Source: Malachius bipustulatus
Lineage: Eukaryota; Arthropoda; Insecta; Coleoptera; Melyridae
Reading direction: 5' to 3'
NCBI GenBank assembly: GCA_910589415.1
Contig: CAJUUM010000032.1
Location: forward strand, 248,001 to 312,000
Length of the DNA: 64,000 nt
Shown here: positions 1 through 64,000 of the stretch, piece after piece
How the letters are laid out: each line of letters opens with the position of its first letter
Numbering within the stretch: position 1 is the stretch's first letter
The notes under the pieces: model-generated
The model's input: only the letters and a program-made list of their open reading frames with translations
The model's database searches: none
What the model was told of the DNA's origin: nothing
Made by a program: the position numbers and the translations under genes

Positions 1-286
1 GTAACTATGACTCTCTTAATAGTGTGCTGTCAAATGCGTCCTCTGCAAACCGGTGACGCGCATGAACGGACTGACGGGATTCCCACTGTCCCTACCCACT
101 AATCTCAAAGTCGTGGACATTTGTTCGAGATGAAGCGGGTAAACGACGGGAGTAACTATGACTCTCTTAATAGTGTGCTGTCAAATGCGTCCTCTGCAAA
201 ACTGGTGACGCGCATGAGCGGACTGACGGAATCCCCACTGTCCCTACTCACACATCTCAAAGTCGTGGACCATTGTTCGAGCTGGT

Positions 287-318
<32 letters not shown>

Positions 319-322
<4 letters not shown>

Positions 323-333
323 TAGTGCGCTGT
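319..333 (+). other. Rewritten R2 / I-PpoI target site (representative)
   Basis: In 28S as I remember it, ctctcttaaggtagccaaa is the I-PpoI site and contains the R2 cleavage position just after TTAA. Here ctctcttaa is kept, but the next six bases (ggtagc) are replaced by eleven (tagtgcgctgt or tagtgtgctgt) before caaatgc resumes. The change begins exactly at the TTAA and adds a net 5 bp. It is present in A, B, V, I and short types, so it predates their divergence. A few copies also alter the TTAA itself (ctctctaaat at about 23,155 and 53,885). Confidence 0.7.
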
Positions 334-380
334 CAAATGCGTCCTCTGCAAACCGGTGACGCGCATGAACGGACTGACGG

Positions 381-397
381 GATTCCCACTGTCCCTA
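381..397 (+). other. Conserved R1-type target core (representative)
   Basis: The string gattcccactgtcccta is identical to the 28S segment into which R1 retrotransposons insert, as I remember it, and is preserved in most long monomers. Variants are gattctt (common) and gaatttccactatcc (I-type). The 100-bp units lack this segment. No retrotransposon sequence is attached to any copy in the window. Confidence 0.6.
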
Positions 398-588
398 CCC
401 ACACATCTCAAAGTCGTGGACCATTGTTCGAGCTGGTGCGGGTAAACGGCGGGTATAACTATGACTCTCTTAATAGTGTGCTGTCAAATGCGTCCTCTGC
501 AAACCGGTGACGCGCATGAGCGAACTGACGGGATTCTTACTGTCCCTACCCACACATCTCAAAGTCGTGGACCATTGTTCGAGCTGGT

Positions 589-611
<23 letters not shown>

Positions 612-621
<10 letters not shown>

Positions 622-711
622 CAATAGTGCGCTGTCAAATGCCTCGTCATCCAAGTAGTGACGCGCCAAGGTAACGAAGTTGGAAGGCGCGGGCGAACGG
701 CGGGAGTAACT
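612..711 (+). pseudogene. SQ-type 100-bp short monomer
   Basis: This short unit keeps a 28S-like aaatgcctcgtcatccaag/tagtgacgcgc, closer to the remembered 28S (cctcgtcatctaattagtga) than any long unit. It then jumps to ccaaggtaacgaagttgg and rejoins at gcgcgggcgaacggcggg. It is usually followed by atgagtctcttagtagtg. The 33 copies I count begin at 612, 4637, 9114, 11579, 13591, 16206, 18671, 20381, 24153, 25259, 25963, 27672, 29131, 30237, 30941, 31947, 33204, 35467, 37177, 39591, 42056, 42307, 48394, 50406, 52871, 54883, 55587, 57296, 58553, 59257, 60263, 61520 and 62979. About half have ccaagtag and half ccaagtgg at the junction. Confidence 0.85.
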
Positions 712-1141
712 ATGAGTCTCTTAGTAGTGTGCTGTCAAATGCGTCCTCTACAAAACGGTGACGCGCATGAACGGACTGACGGGATTCCCACTGTCCCTAC
801 CCACACATCTCAAAGTCGTGGACCATTGTTCGAGCTGGTGCGGGTAAACGGCGGGAGTAACAATGACTCTCTTAATAGTGCGCTGTCAAATGCGTCCTCT
901 GCAAACCGGTGACGCGCATGAACGGACTGACGGGATTCCCACTGTCCCTACCCACACATCTCAAAGTCGTGGACCATTGTTCGAGCTGGTGCGGGTAAAC
1001 GGCGGGAGTAACTATGACCCTCTTAATAGTGTGCTGTCAAATGCGTCCTCTGCAAACCGGTGACGCGCATGAGCGGACTGACGGGATTCTTACTGTCCCT
1101 ACCCACACATCTCAGAGTCGTGGACCATTGTTCGAGCTGGT

Positions 1142-1177
<36 letters not shown>

Positions 1178-1443
1178 TAGTGTGCTGTCAAATGCGTCCT
1201 CTGCAAACCGGTGACGTGCATGAACGGACTGACGGGATTCCCACTGTCCCTACCCACCCATCTGAAAGTCGTGGACCATTTTTCGAGCTGGTGCGGGTAA
1301 ACAGCGGGAGTAACTATGACTCTCTTAATAGTGTGCTGTCAAATGCGTCCTCTGCAAACCGGTGACGCGCATGAACGGACTGACGGGAATCCCACTGTCC
1401 CTACCCACTAATCTCAAAGTCGTGGACCATTGTTTGAGCTGGT

Positions 1444-1479
<36 letters not shown>

Positions 1480-1524
1480 TAGTGCGCTGTCAAATGTGTC
1501 CTCTGCAAACCGGTGACGCGCATG

Positions 1525-1594
1525 AACGGACTGACGTTATTCCCACTGTCCCTACCCACTAATCTCAAAGTCGTGGACATTTGTTCGAGATGAA

Positions 1595-1630
<36 letters not shown>

Positions 1631-1745
1631 TAGTGTGCTGTCAAATGCGTCCTCTGCAAACCGGTGACGCGCATGAGCGGACTGACGGGATTCTTACTGT
1701 CCCTACCCACACATCTCAAAGTCGTGGACCATTGTTCGAGCTGGT

Positions 1746-1781
<36 letters not shown>

Positions 1782-1896
1782 TAGTGCGCTGTCAAATGTG
1801 TCCTCTACAAACCGGTGACGCGCATGAACGGACTGACGGGATTCCCACTGTCCCTACCCACCCATCTCAAAGTCGTGGACCATTTTTCGAGCTGGT

Positions 1897-1928
<32 letters not shown>

Positions 1929-2349
1929 CTAATAGTGTGCCGTCAAATGCGTCCTCTGCAAACCGGTGACGTGCATGAACGGACTGACGGGATTCCCACT
2001 GTCCCTACCCACCCATCTGAAAGTCGTGGACCATTGTTCGAGCTGGTGCGGGTAAACGGCGGGAGTAACTATGATTCTTTTAATAGTGTGCTGTCAAATG
2101 CGTCCTCTGGAAACCGGTGACGCGCATGAACGGACTGACGGAATTTCCACTATCCCTACCCACACATCTCAAAGTCGTGGACCATTGATCGAGCTGGCGT
2201 GGGTGAACGGCGGGAGTGACTATGACTCTCTTAATAATGTGCTGTCAAATGCGTCCTTTGCAAACCGGTGACGCGCATGAGCGGACTGACGGGACTCCCA
2301 CTGTCCCTACCCACACATCTCAAAGTTGTGGACCATTGTTCGAGCTGGT

Positions 2350-2385
<36 letters not shown>

Positions 2386-3153
2386 TAGTGTGCTGTCAAA
2401 TGCGTCCTATGCAAACCGATGACGCGCATGAAAGGACTGGCGGGATTCTCACTGTCCCTACCCACACATCTCAAAGTCGTGGACCATTGTTCGAGTTGGC
2501 GTGGGTGAACGGCGGGAGTGACTATGACTCTCTTAATAGTGTGCTGTCAAATGCGTCGTCATCCAACTGGTGACGCGCCGAGGTAACGGGCTTGGAAGGC
2601 GCGGGCGAACGGCGGGAGTAACTTCGAGTCTCTTAATAGTGTGCTGTCAAATGCATCCTCTGCAAATCGGTGACGCGCATGAGCGGACTGACGGGACTCC
2701 CACTGTCCCTACCCACACATCTCAAAGTCGTGGACCATTGTTCGAGCTGGCGTGGGTGAACGGCGGGAGTGACTATGACTCTCTTAATAGTGTGCTGTCA
2801 AATGCGTCGTCATCCAACTGGTGACGCGCCGAGGTAACGGGCTTGGAAGGCGCGAGCGAACGGCGGGAGTAACTTCGAGTCTCTTAATAGTGTGCTGTCA
2901 AATGCATCCTCTGCAAATCGGTGACGCGCATGAGCGGACTGACGGGACTCCCACTGTCCCTACCCACACATCTCAAAGTCGTGGACCATTGATCGAGCTG
3001 GCGTGGGTGAACGGCGGGAGTGACTATGACTCTCTTAATAATGTGCTGTCAAATGCGTCCTTTGCAAACCGGTGACGCGCATGAGCGGACTGACGGGACT
3101 CCCACTGTCCCTACCCACACATCTCAAAGTTGTGGACCATTGTTCGAGCTGGT

Positions 3154-3189
<36 letters not shown>

Positions 3190-3304
3190 TAGTGTGCTGT
3201 CAAATGCGTCCTATGCAAACCGATGACGCGCATGAACGGACTGACGTTATTCCCACTGTCCCTACCCACTAATCTCAAAGTCGTGGACATTTGTTCGAGA
3301 TGAA

Positions 3305-3340
<36 letters not shown>

Positions 3341-3455
3341 TAGTGTGCTGTCAAATGCGTCCTCTGCAAACCGGTGACGCGCATGAGCGGACTGACGGGA
3401 TTCTTACTGTCCCTACCCACACATCTCAAAGTCGTGGACCATTGTTCGAGCTGGT

Positions 3456-3491
<36 letters not shown>

Positions 3492-3805
3492 TAGTGCGCT
3501 GTCAAATGTGTCCTCTACAAACCGGTGACGCGCATGAACGGACTGACGGGATTCCCACTGTCCCTACCCACCCATCTCAAAGTCGTGGACCATTTTTCGA
3601 GCTGGTGCGGGTAAACGGCGGGAGTAACTATGATTCTCCTAATAGTGTGCCGTCAAATGCGTCCTCTGCAAACCGGTGACGTGCATGAACGGACTGACGG
3701 GATTCCCACTGTCCCTACCCACCCATCTGAAAGTCGTGGACCATTGTTCGAGCTGGTGCGGGTAAACGGCGGGAGTAACTATGATACTTTTAATAGTGTG
3801 CTGTC
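1525..3805 (+). repeat. 1710-bp internal tandem duplication in A1
   Basis: Units beginning at 1618, 1769 and 1920 recur at 3328, 3479 and 3630, an offset of 1710 (10x151 + 2x100). The rare variant gacgttatt marks both starts, at 1533 and 3243. The second copy is truncated at about 3805. The same duplication is present in A2, so it predates the 4025-bp duplication. Confidence 0.8.
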
Positions 3806-4008
3806 AAATGCGTCGTCATCCAACTGGTGACGCGCCGAGGTAACGAGCTTGGAAGGCGCGGGCGAACGGCAGGAGTAACTTCGAGTCTCTTAATAGTGTG
3901 CTGTCAAATGCATCCTCTGCAAACCGGTGACGCGCATGAGCGGACTGACGGGATTCCCACTGTCCCTACCCACACATCTCAAAGTCGTGGACCATTGTTC
4001 GAGCTGGT

Positions 4009-4025
<17 letters not shown>

Positions 4026-4044
<19 letters not shown>

Positions 4045-4311
4045 TAGTGTGCTGTCAAATGCGTCCTCTGCAAACCGGTGACGCGCATGAACGGACTGAC
4101 GGGATTCCCACTGTCCCTACCCACTAATCTCAAAGTCGTGGACATTTGTTCGAGATGAAGCGGGTAAACGACGGGAGTAACTATGACTCTCTTAATAGTG
4201 TGCTGTCAAATGCGTCCTCTGCAAAACTGGTGACGCGCATGAGCGGACTGACGGAATCCCCACTGTCCCTACTCACACATCTCAAAGTCGTGGACCATTG
4301 TTCGAGCTGGT

Positions 4312-4347
<36 letters not shown>

Positions 4348-4613
4348 TAGTGCGCTGTCAAATGCGTCCTCTGCAAACCGGTGACGCGCATGAACGGACT
4401 GACGGGATTCCCACTGTCCCTACCCACACATCTCAAAGTCGTGGACCATTGTTCGAGCTGGTGCGGGTAAACGGCGGGTATAACTATGACTCTCTTAATA
4501 GTGTGCTGTCAAATGCGTCCTCTGCAAACCGGTGACGCGCATGAGCGAACTGACGGGATTCTTACTGTCCCTACCCACACATCTCAAAGTCGTGGACCAT
4601 TGTTCGAGCTGGT

Positions 4614-4646
<33 letters not shown>

Positions 4647-5166
4647 CAATAGTGCGCTGTCAAATGCCTCGTCATCCAAGTAGTGACGCGCCAAGGTAAC
4701 GAAGTTGGAAGGCGCGGGCGAACGGCGGGAGTAACTATGAGTCTCTTAGTAGTGTGCTGTCAAATGCGTCCTCTACAAAACGGTGACGCGCATGAACGGA
4801 CTGACGGGATTCCCACTGTCCCTACCCACACATCTCAAAGTCGTGGACCATTGTTCGAGCTGGTGCGGGTAAACGGCGGGAGTAACAATGACTCTCTTAA
4901 TAGTGCGCTGTCAAATGCGTCCTCTGCAAACCGGTGACGCGCATGAACGGACTGACGGGATTCCCACTGTCCCTACCCACACATCTCAAAGTCGTGGACC
5001 ATTGTTCGAGCTGGTGCGGGTAAACGGCGGGAGTAACTATGACCCTCTTAATAGTGTGCTGTCAAATGCGTCCTCTGCAAACCGGTGACGCGCATGAGCG
5101 GACTGACGGGATTCTTACTGTCCCTACCCACACATCTCAGAGTCGTGGACCATTGTTCGAGCTGGT

Positions 5167-5202
<36 letters not shown>

Positions 5203-5468
5203 TAGTGTGCTGTCAAATGCGTCCTCTGCAAACCGGTGACGTGCATGAACGGACTGACGGGATTCCCACTGTCCCTACCCACCCATCTGAAAGTCGTGGA
5301 CCATTTTTCGAGCTGGTGCGGGTAAACAGCGGGAGTAACTATGACTCTCTTAATAGTGTGCTGTCAAATGCGTCCTCTGCAAACCGGTGACGCGCATGAA
5401 CGGACTGACGGGAATCCCACTGTCCCTACCCACTAATCTCAAAGTCGTGGACCATTGTTTGAGCTGGT

Positions 5469-5504
<36 letters not shown>

Positions 5505-5619
5505 TAGTGCGCTGTCAAATGTGTCCTCTGCAAACCGGTGACGCGCATGAACGGACTGACGTGATTCCCACTGTCCCTACCCACTAATCTCAAAGTCGTG
5601 GACATTTGTTCGAGATGAA

Positions 5620-5655
<36 letters not shown>

Positions 5656-5770
5656 TAGTGTGCTGTCAAATGCGTCCTCTGCAAACCGGTGACGCGCATG
5701 AGCGGACTGACGGGATTCTTACTGTCCCTACCCACACATCTCAAAGTCGTGGACCATTGTTCGAGCTGGT

Positions 5771-5806
<36 letters not shown>

Positions 5807-5921
5807 TAGTGCGCTGTCAAATGTGTCCTCTACAAACCGGTGACGCGCATGAACGGACTGACGGGATTCCCACTGTCCCTACCCACCCATCTCAAAGTCG
5901 TGGACCATTTTTCGAGCTGGT

Positions 5922-5953
<32 letters not shown>

Positions 5954-6374
5954 CTAATAGTGTGCCGTCAAATGCGTCCTCTGCAAACCGGTGACGTGCA
6001 TGAACGGACTGACGGGATTCCCACTGTCCCTACCCACCCATCTGAAAGTCGTGGACCATTGTTCGAGCTGGTGCGGGTAAACGGCGGGAGTAACTATGAT
6101 TCTTTTAATAGTGTGCTGTCAAATGCGTCCTCTGGAAACCGGTGACGCGCATGAACGGACTGACGGAATTTCCACTATCCCTACCCACACATCTCAAAGT
6201 CGTGGACCATTGATCGAGCTGGCGTGGGTGAACGGCGGGAGTGACTATGACTCTCTTAATAATGTGCTGTCAAATGCGTCCTTTGCAAACCGGTGACGCG
6301 CATGAGCGGACTGACGGGACTCCCACTGTCCCTACCCACACATCTCAAAGTTGTGGACCATTGTTCGAGCTGGT

Positions 6375-6410
<36 letters not shown>

Positions 6411-7178
6411 TAGTGTGCTGTCAAATGCGTCCTATGCAAACCGATGACGCGCATGAAAGGACTGGCGGGATTCTCACTGTCCCTACCCACACATCTCAAA
6501 GTCGTGGACCATTGTTCGAGTTGGCGTGGGTGAACGGCGGGAGTGACTATGACTCTCTTAATAGTGTGCTGTCAAATGCGTCGTCATCCAACTGGTGACG
6601 CGCCGAGGTAACGGGCTTGGAAGGCGCGGGCGAACGGCGGGAGTAACTTCGAGTCTCTTAATAGTGTGCTGTCAAATGCATCCTCTGCAAATCGGTGACG
6701 CGCATGAGCGGACTGACGGGACTCCCACTGTCCCTACCCACACATCTCAAAGTCGTGGACCATTGTTCGAGCTGGCGTGGGTGAACGGCGGGAGTGACTA
6801 TGACTCTCTTAATAGTGTGCTGTCAAATGCGTCGTCATCCAACTGGTGACGCGCCGAGGTAACGGGCTTGGAAGGCGCGAGCGAACGGCGGGAGTAACTT
6901 CGAGTCTCTTAATAGTGTGCTGTCAAATGCATCCTCTGCAAATCGGTGACGCGCATGAGCGGACTGACGGGACTCCCACTGTCCCTACCCACACATCTCA
7001 AAGTCGTGGACCATTGATCGAGCTGGCGTGGGTGAACGGCGGGAGTGACTATGACTCTCTTAATAATGTGCTGTCAAATGCGTCCTTTGCAAACCGGTGA
7101 CGCGCATGAGCGGACTGACGGGACTCCCACTGTCCCTACCCACACATCTCAAAGTTGTGGACCATTGTTCGAGCTGGT

Positions 7179-7214
<36 letters not shown>

Positions 7215-7329
7215 TAGTGTGCTGTCAAATGCGTCCTATGCAAACCGATGACGCGCATGAACGGACTGACGTTATTCCCACTGTCCCTACCCACTAATCT
7301 CAAAGTCGTGGACATTTGTTCGAGATGAA

Positions 7330-7365
<36 letters not shown>

Positions 7366-7480
7366 TAGTGTGCTGTCAAATGCGTCCTCTGCAAACCGGT
7401 GACGCGCATGAGCGGACTGACGGGATTCTTACTGTCCCTACCCACACATCTCAAAGTCGTGGACCATTGTTCGAGCTGGT

Positions 7481-7516
<36 letters not shown>

Positions 7517-7631
7517 TAGTGCGCTGTCAAATGTGTCCTCTACAAACCGGTGACGCGCATGAACGGACTGACGGGATTCCCACTGTCCCTACCCACCCAT
7601 CTCAAAGTCGTGGACCATTTTTCGAGCTGGT

Positions 7632-7663
<32 letters not shown>

Positions 7664-7805
7664 CTAATAGTGTGCCGTCAAATGCGTCCTCTGCAAACCG
7701 GTGACGTGCATGAACGGACTGACGGGATTCCCACTGTCCCTACCCACCCATCTGAAAGTCGTGGACCATTGTTCGAGCTGGTGCGGGTAAACGGCGGGAG
7801 TAACT
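4026..7805 (+). repeat. 4025-bp higher-order repeat, copy A2
   Basis: This matches 1-3780 at an offset of 4025 with only isolated differences, for example gacgttatt in A1 (1533) against gacgtgatt in A2 (5558), and gattctccta in A1 (3632) against gactctccta in A2 (7657). Identity breaks at about 7806-7825, where A1 goes into a 100-bp SR unit and A2 continues with a 151-bp unit. Confidence 0.88.
4032..4182 (+). pseudogene. A-type 151-bp monomer (most 28S-like left arm)
   Basis: This representative monomer is phased from the ATG inside the helix 69 loop. A-type units link cactaatctcaaagtcg to gacatttgttcgagatgaag. This left arm is closest to the 28S text I remember (ctactatc, then attcaatgaagcgcggg), so I infer A is the ancestral long type. 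The unit joins the end of the R1-target segment directly to the tcaaagtg-like segment that lies upstream in 28S; that junction is the original tandem-duplication breakpoint. Other A units begin near 9969, 13038, 19828, 26615, 31192, 36422 and 49802. A-type carries an in-frame TAA (actaatc) and TGA (gatgaag) that interrupt frames left open in B-type. Confidence 0.8.
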
Positions 7806-8084
7806 ATGATTCTTTTAATAGTGTGCTGTCAAATGCGTCCTCTGCAAACCGGTGACGCGCATGAACGGACTGACGGAATTTCCACTATCCCTACCCACAC
7901 ATCTCAAAGTCGTGGACCATTGATCGAGCTGGCGTGGGTGAACGGCGGGAGTGACTATGACTCTCTTAATAATGTGCTGTCAAATGCGTCCTTTGCAAAC
8001 CGGTGACGCGCATGAGCGGACTGACGGGACTCCCACTGTCCCTACCCACACATCTCAAAGTTGTGGACCATTGTTCGAGCTGGT

Positions 8085-8120
<36 letters not shown>

Positions 8121-8410
8121 TAGTGTGCTGTCAAATGCGTCCTATGCAAACCGATGACGCGCATGAAAGGACTGGCGGGATTCTCACTGTCCCTACCCAC
8201 ACATCTCAAAGTCGTGGACCATTGTTCGAGCTGGCGTGGGTGAACGGCGGGAGTGACTATGACTCTCTTAATAGTGTGCTGTCAAATGCGTCGTCATCCA
8301 ACTGGTGACGCGCCGAGGTAACGGGCTTGGAAGGCGCGGGCGAACGGCGGGAGTAACTTCGAGTCTCTTAATAGTGTGCTGTCAAATGCATCCTCTGCAA
8401 ATCGGTGACG
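5550..8410 (+). repeat. 1710-bp internal tandem duplication in A2
   Basis: Units at 5794, 5945, 6096, 6241, 6398 and 6595 recur at 7504, 7655, 7806, 7951, 8108 and 8305, again at an offset of 1710. This second copy runs further than its counterpart in A1, to about 8410, where gactccc/gattccc differences begin. The longer retention suggests A1 lost part of it by a later exchange. Confidence 0.78.
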
Positions 8411-8486
8411 CGCATGAGCGGACTGACGGGATTCCCACTGTCCCTACCCACACATCTCAAAGTCGTGGACATTTGTTCGAGATGAA

Positions 8487-8522
<36 letters not shown>

Positions 8523-8788
8523 TAGTGTGCTGTCAAATGCGTCCTCTGCAAACCGGTGACGCGCATGAACGGACTGACGGGATTCCCACTGTCCCTACCC
8601 ACTAATCTCAAAGTCGTGGACATTTGTTCGAGATGAAGCGGGTAAACGGCGTGAGTAACTATGACTCTCTTAATAGTGTGCTGTCAAATGCGTCCTCTGC
8701 AAACCGGTTACGCGCATGAGCGGACTGACGGAATCCCCACTGTCCCTACCCACACATCTCAAAGTCGTGGACCATTGTTCGAGCTGGT

Positions 8789-8824
<36 letters not shown>

Positions 8825-8939
8825 TAGTGCGCTGTCAAATGCGTCCTCTGCAAACCGGTGACGCGCATGAACGGACTGACGGGATTCCCACTGTCCCTAC
8901 CCACACATTTCAAAGTCGTGGACCATTGTTCGAGCTGGT

Positions 8940-8975
<36 letters not shown>

Positions 8976-9090
8976 TAGTGTGCTGTCAAATGCGTCCTCT
9001 GCAAACCGGTGACGCGCATGAGCGGACTGACGGGATTCTTACTGTCCCTACCCACACATCTCAAAGTCGTGGACCATTGTTCGAGCTGGT

Positions 9091-9126
<36 letters not shown>

Positions 9127-9346
9127 TAGTGCGCTGTCAAATGCCTCGTCATCCAAGTGGTGACGCGCCAAGGTAACGAAGTTGGAAGGCGCGGGCGAAC
9201 GGCGGGAGTAACTATGAGTCTCTTAGTAGTGTGCTGTCAAATGCGTCCTCTACAAACCGGTGACGCGCATGAACGGACTGACGGGATTCCCACTGTCCCT
9301 ACCCACACATCTCAAAGTCGTGGACCATTGTTCGAGCTGGTGCGCT

Positions 9347-9377
<31 letters not shown>

Positions 9378-9492
9378 TAGTGTGCTGTCAAATGCGTCCT
9401 CTGCAAACCGGTGAGGCGCATGAGCGGACTGACGGGATTCTTACTGTCCCTACCCACACATCTCAGAGTCGTGGACCATTGTTCGAGCTGGT

Positions 9493-9528
<36 letters not shown>

Positions 9529-9643
9529 TAGTGTGCTGTCAAATGCGTCCTCTGCAAACCGGTGACGTGCATGAACGGACTGACGGGATTCCCACTGTCC
9601 CTACCCACCCATCTGAAAGTCGTGGACCATTTTTCGAGCTGGT

Positions 9644-9679
<36 letters not shown>

Positions 9680-9796
9680 TAGTGTGCTGTCAAATGCGTC
9701 CTCTGCAAACCGGTGACGCGCATGAACGGACTGACGGAATTTCCACTATCCCTACCCACACATCTCAAAGTCGTGGACCATTGTTCGAGCTGGCGT

Positions 9797-9830
<34 letters not shown>

Positions 9831-10096
9831 TAGTGCGCTGTCAAATGCGTCCTCTGCAAACCGGTGACGCGCATGAACGGACTGACGGGATTCTTACTGT
9901 CCCTACCAACACATCTCAAAGTCGTGGACCATTGTTCGAGCTGGTGCGGGTAAACGGCGGGGGTAACTATGACTCTCTTAATAGTGTGCTGTCAAATGCG
10001 TCCTCTGCAAACCGGTGACGCGCATGAACGGACTGACGGGATTCCCACTGTCCCTACCCACTAATCTCAAAGTCGTGGACATTTGTTCGAGATGAA

Positions 10097-10132
<36 letters not shown>

Positions 10133-10549
10133 TAGTGTGCTGTCAAATGCGTCCTCTGCAAATCGGTGACGCGCATGAGCGGACTGACGGGATTCTTACT
10201 GTCCCTACCCACACATCTCAAAGTCGTGGACCATTGTTCGAGCTGGTGCGGGTAAACGGCGGGAGTAACTATGACTGTCTTAATAGTGCGCTGTCAAATG
10301 CGTCCTCTACAAACCGGTGACGCGCATGAACGGACTGACGGGATTCCCACTGTCCCTACCCACACATCTCAAAGTCGTGGACCATTGTTCGAGCTGGTGC
10401 GGGTAAACGGCGGGAGTAGCTATGACTCTCTTAATAGTGTGCTGTCAAATGCGTCCTCTGCAAACCGGTGACGTGCATGAACGGACTGACGGGATTCCCA
10501 CTGTCCCTACCCACCCATCTGAAAGTCGTGGACCATTTTTCGAGCTGGT

Positions 10550-26778: not shown

Positions 26779-27044
26779 TAGTGCGCTGTCAAATGCGTCC
26801 TCTGCAAACCGGTGACGCGCATGAACGGACTGACGGGATTCCCACTGTCCCTACCCACTAATCTCAAAGTCGTGGACATTTGTTCGAGATGAAGCGGGTA
26901 AACGACGGGAGTAACTATGACTCTCTTAATAGTGTGCTGTCAAATGCGTCCTCTGCAAACCGGTGACGCGCATGAGCGGACTGACGGAATCCCCACTGTC
27001 CCTACTCACACATCTCAAAGTCGTGGACCATTGTTCGAGCTGGT

Positions 27045-27080
<36 letters not shown>

Positions 27081-27346
27081 TAGTGTGCTGTCAAATGCGT
27101 CCTCTGCAAACCGGTGACGCGCATGAACGGACTGACGGGATTCCCACTGTCCCTACCCACTAATCTCAAAGTCGTGGACATTTGTTCGAGATGAAGCGGG
27201 TAAACGACGGGAGTTACTATGACTCTCTTAATAGTGTGCTGTCAAATGCGTCCTCTGCAAACCGGTGACGCGCATGAGCGGACTGACGGAATCCCCACTG
27301 TCCCTACTCACACATCTCAAAGTCGTGGACCATTGTTCGAGCTGGT

Positions 27347-27382
<36 letters not shown>

Positions 27383-27497
27383 TAGTGCGCTGTCAAATGC
27401 GTCCTCTGCAAACCGGTGACGCGCATGAACGGACTGACGGGATTCCCACTGTCCCTACCCACACATCTCAAAGTCGTGGACCATTGTTCGAGCTGGT

Positions 27498-27533
<36 letters not shown>

Positions 27534-27648
27534 TAGTGTGCTGTCAAATGCGTCCTCTGCAAACCGGTGACGCGCATGAGCGAACTGACGGGATTCTTAC
27601 TGTCCCTACCCACACATCTCAAAGTCGTGGACCATTGTTCGAGCTGGT

Positions 27649-27681
<33 letters not shown>

Positions 27682-28050
27682 CAATAGTGCGCTGTCAAAT
27701 GCCTCGTCATCCAAGTAGTGACGCGCCAAGGTAACGAAGTTGGAAGGCGCGGGCGAACGGCGGGAGTAACTATGAGTCTCTTAGTAGTGTGCTGTCAAAT
27801 GCGTCCTCTACAAACCGGTGACGCGCATGAACGGACTGACGGGATTCCCACTGTCCCTACCCACACATCTCAAAGTCGTGGACCATTGTTCGAGCTGGTG
27901 CGGGTAAACGGCGGGAGTAACTATGACCCTCTTAATAGTGTGCTGTCAAATGCGTCCTCTGCAAACCGGTGACGCGCATGAGCGGACTGACGGGATTCTT
28001 ACTGTCCCTACCCACACATCTCAGAGTCGTGGACCATTGTTCGAGCTGGT

Positions 28051-53853: not shown

Positions 53854-53886
<33 letters not shown>

Positions 53887-54027
53887 AAATAGTGTGCTGT
53901 CAAATGCGTCCTCTGCAAACCGGTGACGCGCATGAACGGACTGACGGAATTTCCACTATCCCTACCCACACATCTCAAAGTCGTGGACCATTGTTCGAGC
54001 TGGCGTGAGTGAACGGCGGGAGTGACT
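49551..54027 (+). repeat. 4477-bp higher-order repeat, copy D1
   Basis: This is a complete 4477-bp unit bounded by SR units at 49551 and 54028. It matches 8259-12735 at a constant offset of 41292. Private variants include gactgactgaatcccc at about 50,018 and gctgttaaatgcg at about 53,444. The two homologous blocks are separated by about 25 kb of differently organised array. Confidence 0.86.
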
Positions 54028-54255
54028 ATGACTCTCTTAATAGTGTGCTGTCAAATGCGTCGTCATCCAACTGGTGACGCGCCGAGGTAACGAGCTTGGA
54101 AGGCGCGGGCGAACGGCGGGAGTAACTTCGAGTCTCTTAATAGTGTGCTGTCAAATGCATCCTCTGCAAACCGGTGACGCGCATGAGCGGACTGACGGGA
54201 TTCCCACTGTCCCTACCCACACATCTCAAAGTCGTGGACCATTGTTCGAGCTGGT

Positions 54256-54291
<36 letters not shown>

Positions 54292-54708
54292 TAGTGTGCT
54301 GTCAAATGCGTCCTCTGCAAACCGGTGACGCGCATGAACGGACTGACGGGATTCCCACTGTCCCTACCCACTAATCTCAAAGTCGTGGACATTTGTTCGA
54401 GATGAAGCGGGTAAACGACGGGAGTAACTATGACTCTCTTAATAGTGTGCTGTCAAATGCGTCCTCTGCAAACCGGTGACGCGCATGAGCGGACTGACGG
54501 AATCCCCACTGTCCCTACTCACACATCTCAAAGTCGTGGACCATTGTTCGAGCTGGTGCGGGTAAACGGCTGGAGTAACTATGACTCTCTTAATAGTGCG
54601 CTGTCAAATGCGTCCTCTGCAAACCGGTGACGCGCATGAACGGACTGACGGGATTCTTACTGTCCCTACCCACACATCTCAAAGTCGTGGACCATTGTTC
54701 GAGCTGGT

Positions 54709-54744
<36 letters not shown>

Positions 54745-54859
54745 TAGAGTGCTGTCAAATGCGTCCTCTGCAAACCGGTGACGCGCATGAGCGGACTGAC
54801 GGGATTCTTACTGTCCCTACCCACACATCTCAAAGTCGTGGACCATTGTTCGAGCTGGT

Positions 54860-54895
<36 letters not shown>

Positions 54896-55261
54896 TAGAG
54901 CGCTGTCAAATGCCTCGTCATCCAAGTGGTGACGCGCCAAGGTAACGAAGTTGGAAGGCGCGTGCGAACGGCGGGAGTAACTATGAGTCTCTTAGTAGTG
55001 TGCTGTCAAATGCGTCCTCTACAAACCGGTGACGCGCATGAACGGACTGACAGGATTCCCACTGTCCCTACCCACACATCTCAAAGTCGTGGACCATTGT
55101 TCGAGCTGGCGTGGGTGAACGGCGGGAGAAACTATGACTCTCTTAATAGTGTGCTGTCAAATGCATCCTCTGCAAACCGGTGACGCGCATGAGCGGACTG
55201 ACGGAATTCCCACTGTCCCTACCCACTAATCTCAAAGTCGTGGACATTTGTTCGAGATGAA

Positions 55262-55297
<36 letters not shown>

Positions 55298-55412
55298 TAG
55301 TGTGCTGTCAAATGCGTCCTCTGCAAACCGGTGACGCGCATGAGCGGACTGACGGAATCCCAACTGTCCCTACCCACACATCTCAAAGTCGTGGACCATT
55401 GTTCGAGCTGGT

Positions 55413-55448
<36 letters not shown>

Positions 55449-55563
55449 TAGTGTGCTGTCAAATGCGTCCTCTGCAAACCGGTGACGCGCATGAGCGGAC
55501 TGACGGGATTCTTACTGTCCCTACCCACACATCTCAAAGTCGTGGACCATTGTTCGAGCTGGT

Positions 55564-55599
<36 letters not shown>

Positions 55600-55813
55600 T
55601 AGTGCGCTGTCAAATGCCTCGTCATCCAAGTGGTGACGCGCCAAGGTAACGAAGTTGGAAGGCGCGGGCGAACGGCGAGAGTAACTATGAGTCTCTTAGT
55701 AGTGTGCTGTCAAATGCGTCCTCTAAAACCGGTGACGCGCATGAACGGACTGACGGGATTCCCACTGTCCCTACCCACCCATCTCAAAGTCGTGGACCAT
55801 TGTTCGAGCTGGT

Positions 55814-55849
<36 letters not shown>

Positions 55850-56215
55850 TAATGTGCTGTCAAATGCGTCCTATGCAAACCGATGACGCGCATGAAAGGA
55901 CTGACGGGATTCTCACTGTCCCTACCCACACATCTCAAAGTCGTGGACCATTGTTCGAGCTGGCGTGGGTGAACGGCGGGAGTGACTATGACTCTCTTAA
56001 TAGTGTGCTGTCAAATGCGTCGTCATCCAACTGGTGACGCGCCGAGGTAACGGGCTTGGAAGGCGCGGGCGAACGGCGAGAATAACTTCGAGTCTCTTAA
56101 TAGTGTGCTGTCAAATGCATCCTCTGCAAATCGGTGACGCGCATGAGCGGACTGACGGGATTCCCACTGTCCCTACCCACACATCTCAAAGTCGTGGACA
56201 TTTGTTCGAGATGAA

Positions 56216-56251
<36 letters not shown>

Positions 56252-56366
56252 TAGTGTGCTGTCAAATGCGTCCTCTGCAAACCGGTGACGCGCATGAACG
56301 GACTGACGGGATTCCCACTGTCCCTACCCACTAATCTCAAAGTCGTGGACATTTGTTCGAGATGAA

Positions 56367-56402
<36 letters not shown>

Positions 56403-56668
56403 TAGTGCACTGTCAAATGCGTCCTCTGCAAACTGGTGACGCGCATGAACGGACTGACGGGATTCCCACTGTCCCTACCCACTAATCTCAAAGTCGTGGA
56501 CATTTGTTCGAGATGAAGCGGGTAAACGACGGGAGTAACTATGACTCTCTTAATAGTGTGCTGTCAAATGCGTCCTCTGCAAACCGGTGACGCGCATGAG
56601 CGGACTGACGGAATCCCCACTGTCCCTACTCACACATCTCAAAGTCGTGGACCATTGTTCGAGCTGGT

Positions 56669-56704
<36 letters not shown>

Positions 56705-56970
56705 TAGTGTGCTGTCAAATGCGTCCTCTGCAAACCGGTGACGCGCATGAACGGACTGACGGGATTCCCACTGTCCCTACCCACTAATCTCAAAGTCGTG
56801 GACATTTGTTCGAGATGAAGCGGGTAAACGACGGGAGTTACTATGACTCTCTTAATAGTGTGCTGTCAAATGCGTCCTCTGCAAACCGGTGACGCGCATG
56901 AGCGGACTGACGGAATCCCCACTGTCCCTACTCACACATCTCAAAGTCGTGGACCATTGTTCGAGCTGGT

Positions 56971-57006
<36 letters not shown>

Positions 57007-57121
57007 TAGTGCGCTGTCAAATGCGTCCTCTGCAAACCGGTGACGCGCATGAACGGACTGACGGGATTCCCACTGTCCCTACCCACACATCTCAAAGTCG
57101 TGGACCATTGTTCGAGCTGGT

Positions 57122-57157
<36 letters not shown>

Positions 57158-57272
57158 TAGTGTGCTGTCAAATGCGTCCTCTGCAAACCGGTGACGCGCA
57201 TGAGCGAACTGACGGGATTCTTACTGTCCCTACCCACACATCTCAAAGTCGTGGACCATTGTTCGAGCTGGT

Positions 57273-57305
<33 letters not shown>

Positions 57306-57825
57306 CAATAGTGCGCTGTCAAATGCCTCGTCATCCAAGTAGTGACGCGCCAAGGTAACGAAGTTGGAAGGCGCGGGCGAACGGCGGGAGTAACTATGAG
57401 TCTCTTAGTAGTGTGCTGTCAAATGCGTCCTCTACAAACCGGTGACGCGCATGAACGGACTGACGGGATTCCCACTGTCCCTACCCACACATCTCAAAGT
57501 CGTGGACCATTGTTCGAGCTGGTGCGGGTAAACGGCGGGAGTAACAATGACTCTCTTAATAGTGCGCTGTCAAATGCGTCCTCTGCAAACCGGTGACGCG
57601 CATGAACGGACTGACGAGATTCCCACTGTCCCTACCCACACATCTCAAAGTCGTGGACCATTGTTCGAGCTGGTGCGGGTAAACGGCGGGAGTAACTATG
57701 ACCCTCCTAATAGTGTGCTGTCAAATGCGTCCTCTGCAAACCGGTGACGCGCATGAGCGGACTGACGGGATTCTTACTGTCCCTACCCACACATCTCAGA
57801 GTCGTGGACCATTGTTCGAGCTGGT

Positions 57826-57861
<36 letters not shown>

Positions 57862-58378
57862 TAGTGTGCTGTCAAATGCGTCCTCTGCAAACCGGTGACG
57901 TGCATGAACGGACTGACGGGATTCCCACTGTCCCTACCCACCCATCTGAAAGTCGTGGACCATTTTTCGAGCTGGTGCGGGTAAACAGCGGGAGTAACTA
58001 TGACTCTCTTAATAGTGTGCTGTCAAATGCGTCCTCTGCAAACCGGTGACGCGCATGAACGGACTGACGGAATTTCCACTATCCCTACCCACACATCTCA
58101 AAGTCGTGGACCATTGTTCGAGCTGGCGTGGGTGAACGGCGGGAGTGACTATGACTCTCTTAATAGTGTGCTGTCAAATGCGTCGTCATCCAAGTAGTGA
58201 CGCGCCGAGGTAACGGGCTTGGAAGGCGCGGGCGAACGGCGGGAGTAACTTCGAGTCTCTTAATAGTGTGCTGTCAAATGCATCCTCTGCAAACCGGTGA
58301 CGCGCATGAGCGGACTGACGGGATTCCCACTGTCCCTACCCACACATCTCAAAGTCGTGGACCATTGTTCGAGCTGGT

Positions 58379-58414
<36 letters not shown>

Positions 58415-58931
58415 TAGTGTGCTGTCAAATGCGTCCTCTGCAAACCGGTGACGCGCATGAGCGGACTGACGGGATTTTTACTGTCCCTACCCACACATCT
58501 CAAAGTCGTGGACCATTGTTCGAGCTGGTGCGGGTAAACGGCGGGAGTAACTATGACCCTCTTAATAGTGCGCTGTCAAATGCCTCGTCATCCAAGTGGT
58601 GACGCGCCAAGGTAACGAAGTTGGAAGGCGCGGGCGAACGGCGGGAGTAACTATGAGTCTCTTAGTAGTGTGCTGTCAAATGCGTCCTCTACAAACCGGT
58701 GACGCGCATGAACGGACTGACGGGATTCCCACTGTCCCTACCCACACATCTCAAAGTCGTGGACCATTGTTCGAGCTGGCGTGGGTGAACGGCGGGAGAA
58801 ACTATGAATCTCTTAATAGTGTGCTGTCAAATGCATCCTCTGCAAACCGGTGACGCGCATGAGCGGACTGACGGAATTCCCAATGTCCCTACCCACTAAT
58901 CTCAAAGTCGTGGACATTTGTTCGAGATGAA

Positions 58932-58967
<36 letters not shown>

Positions 58968-59082
58968 TAGTGTGCTGTCAAATGCGTCCTCTGCAAACCG
59001 GTGACGCGCATGAGCGGACTGACGGAATCCCCACTGTCCCTACCCACACATCTCAAAGTCGTGGACCATTGTTCGAGCTGGT

Positions 59083-59118
<36 letters not shown>

Positions 59119-59484
59119 TAGTGTGCTGTCAAATGCGTCCTCTGCAAACCGGTGACGCGCATGAGCGGACTGACAGGATTCTTACTGTCCCTACCCACAC
59201 ATCTCAAAGTCGTGGACCATTGTTCGAGCTGGTGCGGGTAAACGGCGGAAGTAACTATGACTCTCTTAATAGTGCGCTGTCAAATGCCTCGTCATCCAAG
59301 TGGTGACGCGCCAAGGTAACGAAGTTGGAAGGCGCGGGCGAACGGCGGGAGTAACTATGAGTCTCTTAGTAGTGTGCTGTCAAATGCGTCCTCTACAAAC
59401 CGGTGACGCGCATGAACGGACTGACGGGATTCCCACTGTCCCTACCCACCCATCTCAAAGTCGTGGACATTTGTTCGAGATGAA

Positions 59485-59520
<36 letters not shown>

Positions 59521-59635
59521 TAGTGTGCTTTCAAATGCGTCCTCTGCAAACCGGTGACGCGCATGAACGGACTGACGGGATTCCCACTGTCCCTACCCAC
59601 TAATCTCAAAGTCGTGGACATTTGTTCGAGATGAA

Positions 59636-59671
<36 letters not shown>

Positions 59672-59786
59672 TAGTGTGCTGTCAAATGCGTCCTCTGCAA
59701 ACCGGTGACGCGCATGAGCGGACTGACGGAATCCCCACTGTCCCTACCCACACATCTCAAAGTCGTGGACCATTGTTCGAGCTAAT

Positions 59787-59822
<36 letters not shown>

Positions 59823-59937
59823 TAGTGCGCTGTCAAATGCGTCCTCTGCAAACCGGTGACGCGCATGAACGGACTGACGGGATTCCCACTGTCCCTACCC
59901 ACACATCTCAAAGTCGTGGACCATTGTTCGAGCTGGT

Positions 59938-59973
<36 letters not shown>

Positions 59974-60239
59974 TAGTGTGCTGTCAAATGCGTCCTCTGC
60001 AAACCGGTGACGCGCATGAACGGACTGACGGGATTCCCACTGTCCCTACCCACTAATCTCAAAGTCGTGGACATTTGTTCGAGATGAAGCGGGTAAACGG
60101 CGGGAGTAATCATGACTCTCTTAATAGTGTGCTGTCAAATGCGTCCTCTGCAAACCGGTGACGCGCATGACCGAACTGACGGGATTCTTACTGTCCCTAC
60201 CCACACATCTCAAAGTCGTGGACCATTGTTCGAGCTGGT

Positions 60240-60275
<36 letters not shown>

Positions 60276-60490
60276 TAGTGCGCTGTCAAATGCCTTGTCA
60301 TCCAAGTAGTGACGCGCCAAGGTAACGAAGTTGGAAGGCGCGGGCGAACGGCGGGAGTAACTATGAGTCTCTTAGTAGTGTGCTGTCAAATGCGTCCTCT
60401 ACAAACCGGTGACGCGCATGAACGGACTGACGGGATTCCCACTGTCCCTACCTACACATCTCAAAGTCGTGGACCATTGTTCGAGCTGGT

Positions 60491-60526
<36 letters not shown>

Positions 60527-60792
60527 TAGTGTGCTGTCAAATGCGTCCTCTGCAAACCGGTGACGCGCATGAGCGGACTGACGGGATTCTTACTGTCCCT
60601 ACCTACACATCTCAGAGTCGTGGACCATTGTTCGAGCTGGTGCGGGTGAACGGCGGGAGTAACTATGACTCTCTTAATAGTGTGCTGTCAAATGCCTCCT
60701 CTGCAAACCGGTGACGTGCATGAACGGACTGACGGGATTCCCACTGTCCCTACCCACCCATCTGAAAGTCGTGGACCATTTTTCGAGCTAGT

Positions 60793-60828
<36 letters not shown>

Positions 60829-61198
60829 TAGTGTGCTGTCAAATGCGTCCTCTGCAAACCGGTGACGTGCATGAACGTACTGACGGAATTTCCACTATCC
60901 CTACCCACACATCTCAAAGTCGTGAACCATTGTTCGAGCTGGCGTGGGTGAACGGCGGGAGTGACTATGACTCTCTTAATAGTGTGCTGTCAAATGCGTC
61001 GTCATCCAAGTGGTGACGCGCCGAGGTAACGGGCTTGGAAGGCGCGGGCGAACGGCGGGAGTAACTTCGAGTCTCTTAATAGTGTGCTGTCAAATGCATC
61101 CTCTGCAAACCGGTGACGCGCATGAGCGGACTGACGGGATTCTCACTATCCCTACCCACACATCTCAAAGTCGTGGACCATTTTTCGAGCTGGTGCGT

Positions 61199-61230
<32 letters not shown>

Positions 61231-61496
61231 TAGTGTGCTGTCAAATTCGTCCTCTGCAAACCGGTGACGCGCATGAACGGACTGACGGGATTCCCACTGT
61301 CCCTACCCACTAATCTCAAAGTCGTGGACATTTGTTCGAGATGAAGCGGGTAAACGGCGGGAGTAACTGTGACTCTCTTAATAGTGTGCTGTCAATAGCG
61401 TCCTCTGCAAATCGGTGACGCGCATGAGCGGACTGACGGGATTCTTACTGTCCCTACTCACACATCTCAAAGTCGTGGACCATTGTTCGAGCTGGT

Positions 61497-61532
<36 letters not shown>

Positions 61533-61747
61533 TAGTGCGCTGTCAAATGCCTCGTCATCCAAGTGGTGACGCGCCAAGGTAACGAAGTTGGAATGCGCGG
61601 GCGAACGGCGGGAGTAACTATGAGTCTCTTAATAGTGTGCTGTCAAATGCGTCCTCTACAAACCGGTGACGCGCATGAACGGACTGACGGGATTCCCACT
61701 GTCCCTACCCACCCATCTGAAAGTCGTGGACCATTGTTCGAGCTGGT

Positions 61748-61783
<36 letters not shown>

Positions 61784-61870
61784 CAGTGTGCTGTCAAATG
61801 CGTCCTCTGCAAACCGGTGACGCGCATGAGCGGACTGACGGAATCCCCACTGTCCCTACCCACACATCTC
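54028..61870 (+). repeat. Block C2, rearranged copy of C1
   Basis: It follows C1 with stepwise offsets as described under C1. Compared with C1 it lacks 1106 bp, has only one copy of the 1459-bp segment and keeps one monomer at 57547 that C1 lacks there. Rare shared changes, such as gagagtaac in the SQ unit at about 26,052 and 55,676, confirm common descent. Confidence 0.82.
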
Positions 61871-62049
61871 AAAGTCGTGGACCATTGTTCGAGCTGGCGT
61901 GAGTGAACGGCGGGAGTGACTATGACTCTCTTAATAGTGTGCTGTCAAATGCGTCCTCTGCAAACCGGTGACGCGCATGAACGGACTGACGGGATTCCCA
62001 CTGTCCCTACCCACTAATCTCAAAGTCGTGGACATTTGTTCGAGATGAA

Positions 62050-62071
<22 letters not shown>
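56389..62071 (+). repeat. 5683-bp higher-order repeat, copy 1
   Basis: Thirty-three long plus seven short units. The sequence from 56389 recurs from 62072. The rare string agtgcactgtc with gcaaactggtgacg is found at both starts (about 56,405 and 62,088), and gacgagattccc with gaccctcctaat is found in both (about 57,613 and 63,296). Confidence 0.85.
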
Positions 62072-62085
<14 letters not shown>

Positions 62086-62351
62086 TAGTGCACTGTCAAA
62101 TGCGTCCTCTGCAAACTGGTGACGCGCATGAACGGACTGACGGGATTCCCACTGTCCCTACCCACTAATCTCAAAGTCGTGGACATTTGTTCGAGATGAA
62201 GCGGGTAAACGACGGGAGTAACTATGACTCTCTTAATAGTGTGCTGTCAAATGCGTCCTCTGCAAACCGGTGACGCGCATGAGCGGACTGACGGAATCCC
62301 CACTGTCCCTACTCACACATCTCAAAGTCGTGGACCATTGTTCGAGCTGGT

Positions 62352-62387
<36 letters not shown>

Positions 62388-62653
62388 TAGTGTGCTGTCA
62401 AATGCGTCCTCTGCAAACCGGTGACGCGCATGAACGGACTGACGGGATTCCCACTGTCCCTACCCACTAATCTCAAAGTCGTGGACATTTGTTCGAGATG
62501 AAGCGGGTAAACGACGGGAGTTACTATGACTCTCTTAATAGTGTGCTGTCAAATGCGTCCTCTGCAAACCGGTGACGCGCATGAGCGGACTGACGGAATC
62601 CCCACTGTCCCTACTCACACATCTCAAAGTCGTGGACCATTGTTCGAGCTGGT

Positions 62654-62689
<36 letters not shown>

Positions 62690-62804
62690 TAGTGCGCTGT
62701 CAAATGCGTCCTCTGCAAACCGGTGACGCGCATGAACGGACTGACGGGATTCCCACTGTCCCTACCCACACATCTCAAAGTCGTGGACCATTGTTCGAGC
62801 TGGT

Positions 62805-62840
<36 letters not shown>

Positions 62841-63508
62841 TAGTGTGCTGTCAAATGCGTCCTCTGCAAACCGGTGACGCGCATGAGCGAACTGACGGGA
62901 TTCTTACTGTCCCTACCCACACATCTCAAAGTCGTGGACCATTGTTCGAGCTGGTGCGGGTAAACGGCGGGAGGAACTATGACTCTCTCAATAGTGCGCT
63001 GTCAAATGCCTCGTCATCCAAGTAGTGACGCGCCAAGGTAACGAAGTTGGAAGGCGCGGGCGAACGGCGGGAGTAACTATGAGTCTCTTAGTAGTGTGCT
63101 GTCAAATGCGTCCTCTACAAACCGGTGACGCGCATGAACGGACTGACGGGATTCCCACTGTCCCTACCCACACATCTCAAAGTCGTGGACCATTGTTCGA
63201 GCTGGTGCGGGTAAACGGCGGGAGTAACAATGACTCTCTTAATAGTGCGCTGTCAAATGCGTCCTCTGCAAACCGGTGACGCGCATGAACGGACTGACGA
63301 GATTCCCACTGTCCCTACCCACACATCTCAAAGTCGTGGACCATTGTTCGAGCTGGTGCGGGTAAACGGCGGGAGTAACTATGACCCTCCTAATAGTGTG
63401 CTGTCAAATGCGTCCTCTGCAAACCGGTGACGCGCATGAGCGGACTGACGGGATTCTTACTGTCCCTACCCACACATCTCAGAGTCGTGGACCATTGTTC
63501 GAGCTGGT

Positions 63509-63544
<36 letters not shown>

Positions 63545-64000
63545 TAGTGTGCTGTCAAATGCGTCCTCTGCAAACCGGTGACGTGCATGAACGGACTGAC
63601 GGGATTGCCACTGTCCCTACCCACCCATCTGAAAGTCGTGGACCATTTTTCGAGCTGGTGCGGGTAAACAGCGGGAGTAACTATGACTCTCTTAATAGTG
63701 TGCTGTCAAATGCGTCCTCTGCAAACCGGTGACGCGCATGAACGGACTGACGGAATTTCCACTATCCCTACCCACACATCTCAAAGTCGTGGACCATTGT
63801 TCGAGCTGGCGTGGGTGAACGGCGGGAGTGACTATGACTCTCTTAATAGTGTGCTGTCAAATGCGTCGTCATCCAAGTAGTGACGCGCCGAGGTAACGGG
63901 CTTGGAAGGCGCGGGCGAACGGCGGGAGTAACTTCGAGTCTCTTAATAGTGTGCTGTCAAATGCATCCTCTGCAAACCGGTGACGCGCATGAGCGGACTG
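62072..64000 (+). repeat. 5683-bp higher-order repeat, copy 2 (cut by window end)
   Basis: This matches 56389-58317. Private changes include cgggaggaactatg at about 62,969 and gggattgccactg at about 63,601. The array continues past the window end within a monomer. Confidence 0.85.

What the first reader, a model, noticed from the sequence alone, without database searches (positions are those of the whole stretch)
1..64000. Megasatellite built from the R2/R1 insertion region of 28S rRNA
At least 64 kb of tandem DNA derives from about 140 nt of 28S domain IV, the segment where R2 and R1 retrotransposons and several homing endonucleases act. Satellites seeded by tRNA or 5S genes are familiar; one seeded by this hot spot and expanded to this scale is unusual to me, and I know of no described equivalent. 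A mechanistic link is plausible: repeated R2 or R1 cleavage and repair of 28S would create the broken ends that seed short tandem duplications. The link is inference.
Basis: partly seen in the sequence, partly recalled or inferred. Interest (0 to 1): 0.88.

Follow-up and report, generated by a model that had tools for sequence, protein, structure and literature searches.

The report
Satellite DNA made from 28S rRNA
This 64,000-base stretch is one unbroken satellite array built from a short piece of the large ribosomal RNA gene, and almost every repeat carries the same small scar at the place where R2 jumping elements cut that gene, which makes the idea that such cuts can seed new satellite DNA testable.

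Summary
Confirmed, with corrections. All of 1-64000 is tandem array: 446 whole units, 379 of about 151 bp (A) and 67 of 100 bp (b). One A unit matches Rfam LSU_rRNA_eukarya at 53.6 bits, E 2.1e-12. Recognisable 28S is about 110 nt in A; A's last 35 nt are not recognisably 28S. The b units, not described in the finding, skip the R1 region and join a further 19 nt of 28S.

Added here: A and b share one lesion immediately after TTAA, at the R2 cleavage site (GG lost, about 7 nt gained), in 445 of 446 units, with no near-intact R2 site. Elsewhere in the shared stretch, 67 of 71 28S bases survive in at least one unit type, so the lesion is probably as old as the array. This fits a founder scarred by R2-type cleavage, then spread by unequal exchange. 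The R2 step is inferred: host, its 28S and its R2 were not seen (genome search did not complete). Filed as a new variant of rDNA-derived satellites.

The parts
1..64000 (+). Tandem array, 28S-sense on the + strand; 446 whole units between 11 and 63937 plus partial units at both edges; no other DNA
996..1146 (+). Example of an A unit (about 151 bp; 379 of 446 units)
996..1106 (+). 28S-homologous part of that A unit: Rfam RF02543 positions 2247-2352
   Evidence: 53.6 bits, E 2.1e-12
1027..1038 (+). R2-site lesion in that A unit: after TTAA, 28S GGTAGCC is replaced by TAGTGTGCTGTC; lesion present in 445 of 446 units
1107..1141 (+). A tail, 35 nt, not recognisably 28S (tested on the A consensus)
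   Evidence: p 0.34 against shuffles; coordinates
616..715 (+). Example of a b unit (100 bp; 67 of 446 units): 28S up to GTGACGCGC, then a jump to CAAGGTAACG..TTGGAA
11..1470 (+). Ten-unit block repeated identically at 4036 (lag 4025 bp); a second 14-unit block 1622-3633 is repeated at 5647 with the same lag
26921..27775 (+). Six-unit block repeated identically at 56545 (lag 29624); several blocks share lags of 28-30 kb, pointing to a larger duplication

Best explanation
It is a non-coding satellite whose founder was a fragment of domain IV of a 28S rRNA gene. Shown: the 28S origin, the two unit types, one lesion at the R2 cut shared by both types, higher-order repeats and multi-kilobase duplications. 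Inferred: the founder copy was cut at the R2 site (by an R2 element or another endonuclease acting there) and repaired imprecisely, losing the GG between the two nicks and gaining about 7 nt. The damaged fragment was then duplicated head to tail and expanded by unequal exchange. Loss of the cut site would spare the growing array from further R2 insertion; no insertion is seen in 64 kb. Rough confidence by step: 28S origin 0.97; lesion present in the A/b ancestor 0.85 (lowered from 0.93 on rechecking, because gene conversion between unit types could also have spread it); amplification by unequal exchange or segmental duplication 0.9; lesion made by R2-type cleavage 0.45.
For: 28S origin. Lesion: in the A consensus identity to 28S is unbroken for 36 nt up to TTAA and breaks exactly there (Rfam's own alignments put the insertion at the same left edge). 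445 of 446 units begin with CTCTCTTAATAGTG within 2 substitutions; no site within 3 substitutions of CTCTTAAGGTAGCCAAATG or within 2 of the I-PpoI site on either strand. Shared by A, b1 and b2, while 67 of 71 other aligned positions keep the 28S base in at least one of the three consensus sequences. R2 fit: in the stick insect the 28S before the R2 insertion site ends ..CTCTCTTAAGG, and 2 of the 7 junction rows tabulated, both of them of functional (not degenerate) R2, end ..CTCTCTTAA with GG lost (PMC4370867, section read; the other 5 rows lose more); the second nick lies 2 bp upstream of the first (PMC12180492 passage); the cockroach R2 deletes three (PMC7650587 passage). R2-made breaks are reported to drive rDNA expansion by unequal exchange in Drosophila (PMC10266012 passages). 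Array dynamics: 203 distinct units among 446; identical blocks at lags of 1459, 4025, 7092 bp and 28-30 kb, among others.
Against: The host is unknown and no R2 or R1 sequence was recognised in the window. R2 itself is an animal element (recalled), so a non-animal host would exclude it. The gained 7 nt were not traced to any R2 end and are not significantly templated by nearby 28S (p 0.29, 0.50, 0.77, 0.94 for four forms). One indel falling on the R2 site among some 73 possible places (my arithmetic, no call) is suggestive, not decisive, and the inner alignment of it is ambiguous. A's divergence is uneven: 14 substitutions in 109 aligned positions, longest perfect run 39 including the H69 stretch (p 0.019), and an unrecognisable tail; a single decay clock does not explain that. 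Gene conversion could have copied the lesion between A and b after they split.
Confidence: 0.5

Rival explanations
1. A 28S-derived satellite whose R2-site lesion is an ordinary mutation: a fragment of a 28S pseudogene was duplicated by replication slippage or from an extrachromosomal circle, and the indel happened to fall at the R2 site.
For: All the evidence for 28S origin and array dynamics fits equally; the insert has no templated signature and no R2 end was identified.
Against: The only indel of the shared A/b stretch begins at the exact R2 cut and, in the alignment, lacks exactly the two bases between the R2 nicks.
Confidence: 0.37
2. The long target-site duplication of an R2/R9-like element gave the first head-to-tail copy of 28S sequence, and the element was later lost.
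For: [quoted passage not shown] its 126-bp length is recalled). That is near the 149-nt span of the typed 28S reference segment.
Against: No element remnant of any size fits between units of 100-152 bp; the R9 duplication interval was not available to compare; the A tail and the b deletion need extra steps.
Confidence: 0.08
3. The repeats are still functional: a tandemly encoded small RNA or rRNA-like fragment under selection for the H69 sequence.
For: The 36 nt before the lesion are perfectly kept in the A consensus; one b unit folds somewhat better than shuffles (z -1.83, 9 of 200 shuffles as good).
Against: The one A unit tested folds no better than shuffles on either strand (z 0.44 and 1.64). 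The 23-nt H69 element is letter-perfect at 248 of 379 boundaries that follow an A unit and at 1 of 67 that follow a b unit. GGTAGC, part of the Rfam consensus, is destroyed.
Confidence: 0.03
4. Chance or convergent resemblance to 28S, or an assembly artefact.
For: No gathering-level match when the whole window was given to Rfam; no match at E up to 1 in 6 kb.
Against: Local scores 5 times (A) and 3.3 times (b) the best of 500 shuffles; E 2.1e-12 on a single unit. 203 distinct units among 446 argue against a looped or collapsed assembly but do not exclude misassembly.
Confidence: 0.02

Closest known systems
IGS-derived satellites (tomato, Vicia, potato and others)
   Same: A satellite derived from 45S rDNA; in tomato, spread by unequal exchange and segmental duplication (PMC2679016 passages; Vicia and potato as titles in the reference list of review PMC12692304)
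   Different: Those come from the intergenic spacer or its subrepeats; here the source is the conserved core of the 28S coding region
5S rDNA-derived satellites (Hoplias, PcP190 of frogs, Plantago B chromosome)
   Same: A satellite from an RNA-coding gene (titles in the reference list of PMC12692304)
   Different: 5S genes are already short tandem units; here about 110 nt was cut out of a long gene
Germ1 of sea lamprey
   Same: Repeat with truncated 28S bounded by an R2 junction (described in passages of PMC9734144)
   Different: Germ1 carries R2-derived sequence next to truncated 28S; no R2 sequence was recognised here, only a scar, and the unit is about 151 bp
Truncated R2 insertions and R2 5' junctions in Bacillus rossius
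   Same: 28S broken at TTAA with GG lost in some junctions (PMC4370867 section)
   Different: Those are R2 insertions within rDNA, not a satellite

Membership tests
Satellite DNA | Long head-to-tail non-coding array with concerted, higher-order structure | tested here: met
   446 units, mean pairwise identity 0.94 in both types; no stop-to-stop ORF of 140 aa or more; nested duplications
rDNA-derived satellite | Monomer homologous to part of an rRNA gene unit | tested here: met
rDNA-derived satellite, kinds seen described in the papers opened | Source is the IGS or 5S gene | tested here: not met
   Homology is to RF02543 positions 2247-2352, in the 28S coding core
R2 insertion or R2-derived repeat | Contains R2 sequence | tested here: inconclusive
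   No long ORF and no unit longer than 152 bp, so no sizeable R2 piece; a 7-nt remnant cannot be judged
R2-type cleavage scar | Lesion at the two R2 nick positions | tested here: met
   Left edge after TTAA, GG absent (nick spacing and junctions). Position met; agent not shown
Functional 28S gene | Intact conserved core at TTAAGGTAG | tested here: not met
   0 occurrences of TTAAGGTAG in the window's + strand; no near match to the R2 site on either strand
Named satellite in Dfam or RepBase | Sequence match | not testable with these tools
   Neither library was available

The most novel reading that the evidence does not exclude
R2 (or another endonuclease at the same site) made this satellite: its cut both supplied the broken end that seeded a tandem duplication of 28S and, by destroying the cut site, made the new array immune to further R2 insertion, so it could expand freely. 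R2-bearing lineages would then repeatedly produce scar-bearing 28S satellites.
Probability: 0.3. Interest if true: 0.8.

Novelty: new variant of a known kind. Interest (0 to 1): 0.6.

Why it matters
Where new satellites come from is mostly unknown. The 2025 review consulted here (passages) names rDNA spacers as sources and cites 5S-derived cases, and the term 28S occurs 0 times in its held text. R2 breaks are reported to expand rDNA copy number in flies. A satellite made from the R2 target itself, with nearly every copy carrying the cut-site scar, would link a site-specific retrotransposon to the birth of satellite DNA and give a sequence signature that can be looked for in other genomes.

Tried and rejected
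Host genome: the genome search ('own', same query) did not complete, 20 of 20 requests. Relatives: a universal 28S string in viral contigs and the array string in viral contigs and genome contigs gave 0; phages and plasmids by distant blastn with window 905-1357 gave no match. These collections are viral, plasmid or prokaryotic, so the result says little about eukaryotes.

Rejected: templated insert at the lesion, p 0.29 for the b1-like form, 0.77 for the common form, 0.50 and 0.94 for longer versions. Selected RNA fold, on three folds of one A and one b unit (the b unit was weakly better than shuffles, 9 of 200). Coding. tRNA. The promoter-like hits (43 against 4.4 expected, 6 kb only) are two motifs repeated with the units, in a scan built for bacteria. 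The snoRNA rows (15.7 bits against a gathering score of 85; 11.4 against 36) are far below threshold; a likely reason is that snoRNA guides are complementary to rRNA.

Literature: ten answered searches; no 28S-core-derived satellite was found among listed titles and abstracts or in the passages opened. Lists were partial (20 of 37; 20 of 338; 15 of 46; 14 of 15). The library is open-access PMC only. Papers seen only as find-passages: PMC9734144, PMC5035012, PMC12180492, PMC3581529, PMC12203849, PMC10257491, PMC4687646, PMC3500242, PMC7650587, PMC12692304, PMC7598501, PMC2679016, PMC10266012; one section read plus passages: PMC4370867.
Full report
What is there. The window is array from edge to edge. 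A dynamic segmentation on a 26-base anchor gave 446 contiguous whole units from 11 to 63937: 379 A units (373 of 151 bp, 4 of 150, 2 of 152) and 67 b units of exactly 100 bp; the first and last bases read as array too. Mean pairwise identity is 0.94 within each type, and 203 unit sequences are distinct among 446. There is no insertion, no stop-to-stop ORF of 140 aa or more and no tRNA.

28S origin. Given about one unit at a time, Rfam's eukaryotic LSU model matches A (996-1106) at 53.6 bits, E 2.1e-12, positions 2247-2352, and b (605-666) at 31.9 bits, below the gathering score. Given 6 kb or 64 kb it reported nothing, so the model alone is near its limit. Shuffle tests settle the question: A scores 129 against a maximum of 26 in 500 dinucleotide shuffles, and 73 against 28 with the helix-69 core masked; b scores 83 against 25, and 43 against 29 masked. 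Homology in A runs from GCGGGTAAACGG to CCCTACCCAC, about 110 nt, with 14 substitutions in 109 aligned positions. The last 35 nt of A are not distinguishable from chance (p 0.34).

The b unit. It follows 28S to GTGACGCGC, then jumps over the R1 region to CAAGGTAACG..TTGGAA, 19 nt that match 28S further downstream (score 28; 5000 shuffles reached at most 24, reference recalled, in part supported). Two subtypes, b1 (33) and b2 (34), mostly alternate along the array: 47 of 66 successive b pairs are of different subtype.

The lesion. In the A consensus 28S identity is unbroken for 36 nt up to CTCTCTTAA and ends there. Instead of GGTAGCCAAATG the array has TAGTGTGCTGTCAAATG: GG missing and about 7 nt gained in one of several possible alignments, all of those printed with the same left edge. 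It is present in 445 of 446 units; nothing near an intact R2 or I-PpoI site exists on either strand (site strings recalled). In the stretch shared by A and b, 67 of 71 aligned positions keep the 28S base in at least one of the three consensus sequences. So their common ancestor was probably nearly pure 28S plus this lesion, unless gene conversion spread the lesion later.

Why R2 is a candidate. R2 makes its second nick 2 bp upstream of the first (PMC12180492, passage). In Bacillus rossius the 28S before the insertion site ends TTAAGG, and 2 of 7 tabulated R2 junction rows end TTAA; the other five lose more (PMC4370867, section read). In the cockroach three nucleotides are lost (PMC7650587, passage). 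The array lesion has the same left edge and the same missing GG. In Drosophila, R2 breaks are reported to drive rDNA expansion by unequal exchange (PMC10266012, passages). Against this: host unknown, no R2 seen, the 7 nt unexplained and not templated, and one indel on one site is weak statistics. I put R2-type cleavage at 0.45.

Spread. Identical multi-unit blocks recur at lags of 1459, 4025, 7092 bp and around 28-30 kb, among others, and after 151 and 302 bp the strongest self-comparison lags are 855, 1006 and 704 bp, which equal five, six or four A units plus one b. This is ordinary satellite turnover by unequal exchange and segmental duplication.

Not a conserved RNA. The 23-nt H69 element is letter-perfect at 248 of 379 boundaries following an A unit and 1 of 67 following a b unit. 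Folding gave z 0.44 and 1.64 for the two strands of one A unit and -1.83 for one b unit.

Known context. The 2025 satellite review consulted here names IGS as a source and cites 5S-derived cases; the term 28S occurs 0 times in it (PMC12692304, passages). Lamprey Germ1, truncated 28S at an R2 junction, is the nearest precedent seen (PMC9734144, passages). Tribolium CenH3 chromatin is enriched in a 28S-like cluster (PMC7598501, passages), not described as a satellite in the passages I saw. I found no satellite described as derived from the 28S core in ten searches, which cover open-access papers only and were listed in part.

Verdict. The proposed mechanism is strengthened for R2 by the shared scar but not proven, and gains nothing for R1. 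New variant of a known kind.

Noticed in passing
whole window, A units: Of 14 A-consensus substitutions against the Rfam 28S consensus, 9 are A:T to G:C and 1 is G:C to A:T, opposite to the C-to-T decay expected of silent, methylated repeats; biased gene conversion is one possible reason. The polarity assumes that the host 28S equals the consensus.
   Followed up: partly
window 1107-1141 and the matching part of other A units: The 35-nt A tail has no recognisable source although the unit length is close to that of an uninterrupted 28S segment (149 nt in the typed reference); either strongly diverged 28S or foreign filler.
   Followed up: partly
junctions after b units, e.g. 708-724 and 63929-63945: The H69 element is altered after 66 of 67 b units: mostly AACTATGAGTCTCTTAG (26 units) or AACTTCGAGTCTCTTAA (26 units) in place of AACTATGACTCTCTTAA.
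   Followed up: partly
unit start GCGGGTAAACGG: The upstream edge of 28S homology in A coincides with the 38-nt deletion edge of one truncated R2 junction in Bacillus rossius (GAAGC, then R2; PMC4370867 Table 3). May be coincidence.
   Followed up: no
PMC3500242 table: An aphid 'conserved miRNA' (miR-2138, AAGGGAACGGGCTTGGCAGAAT) is contained letter for letter in a plant 26S primer, so it is probably an rRNA fragment.
   Followed up: no
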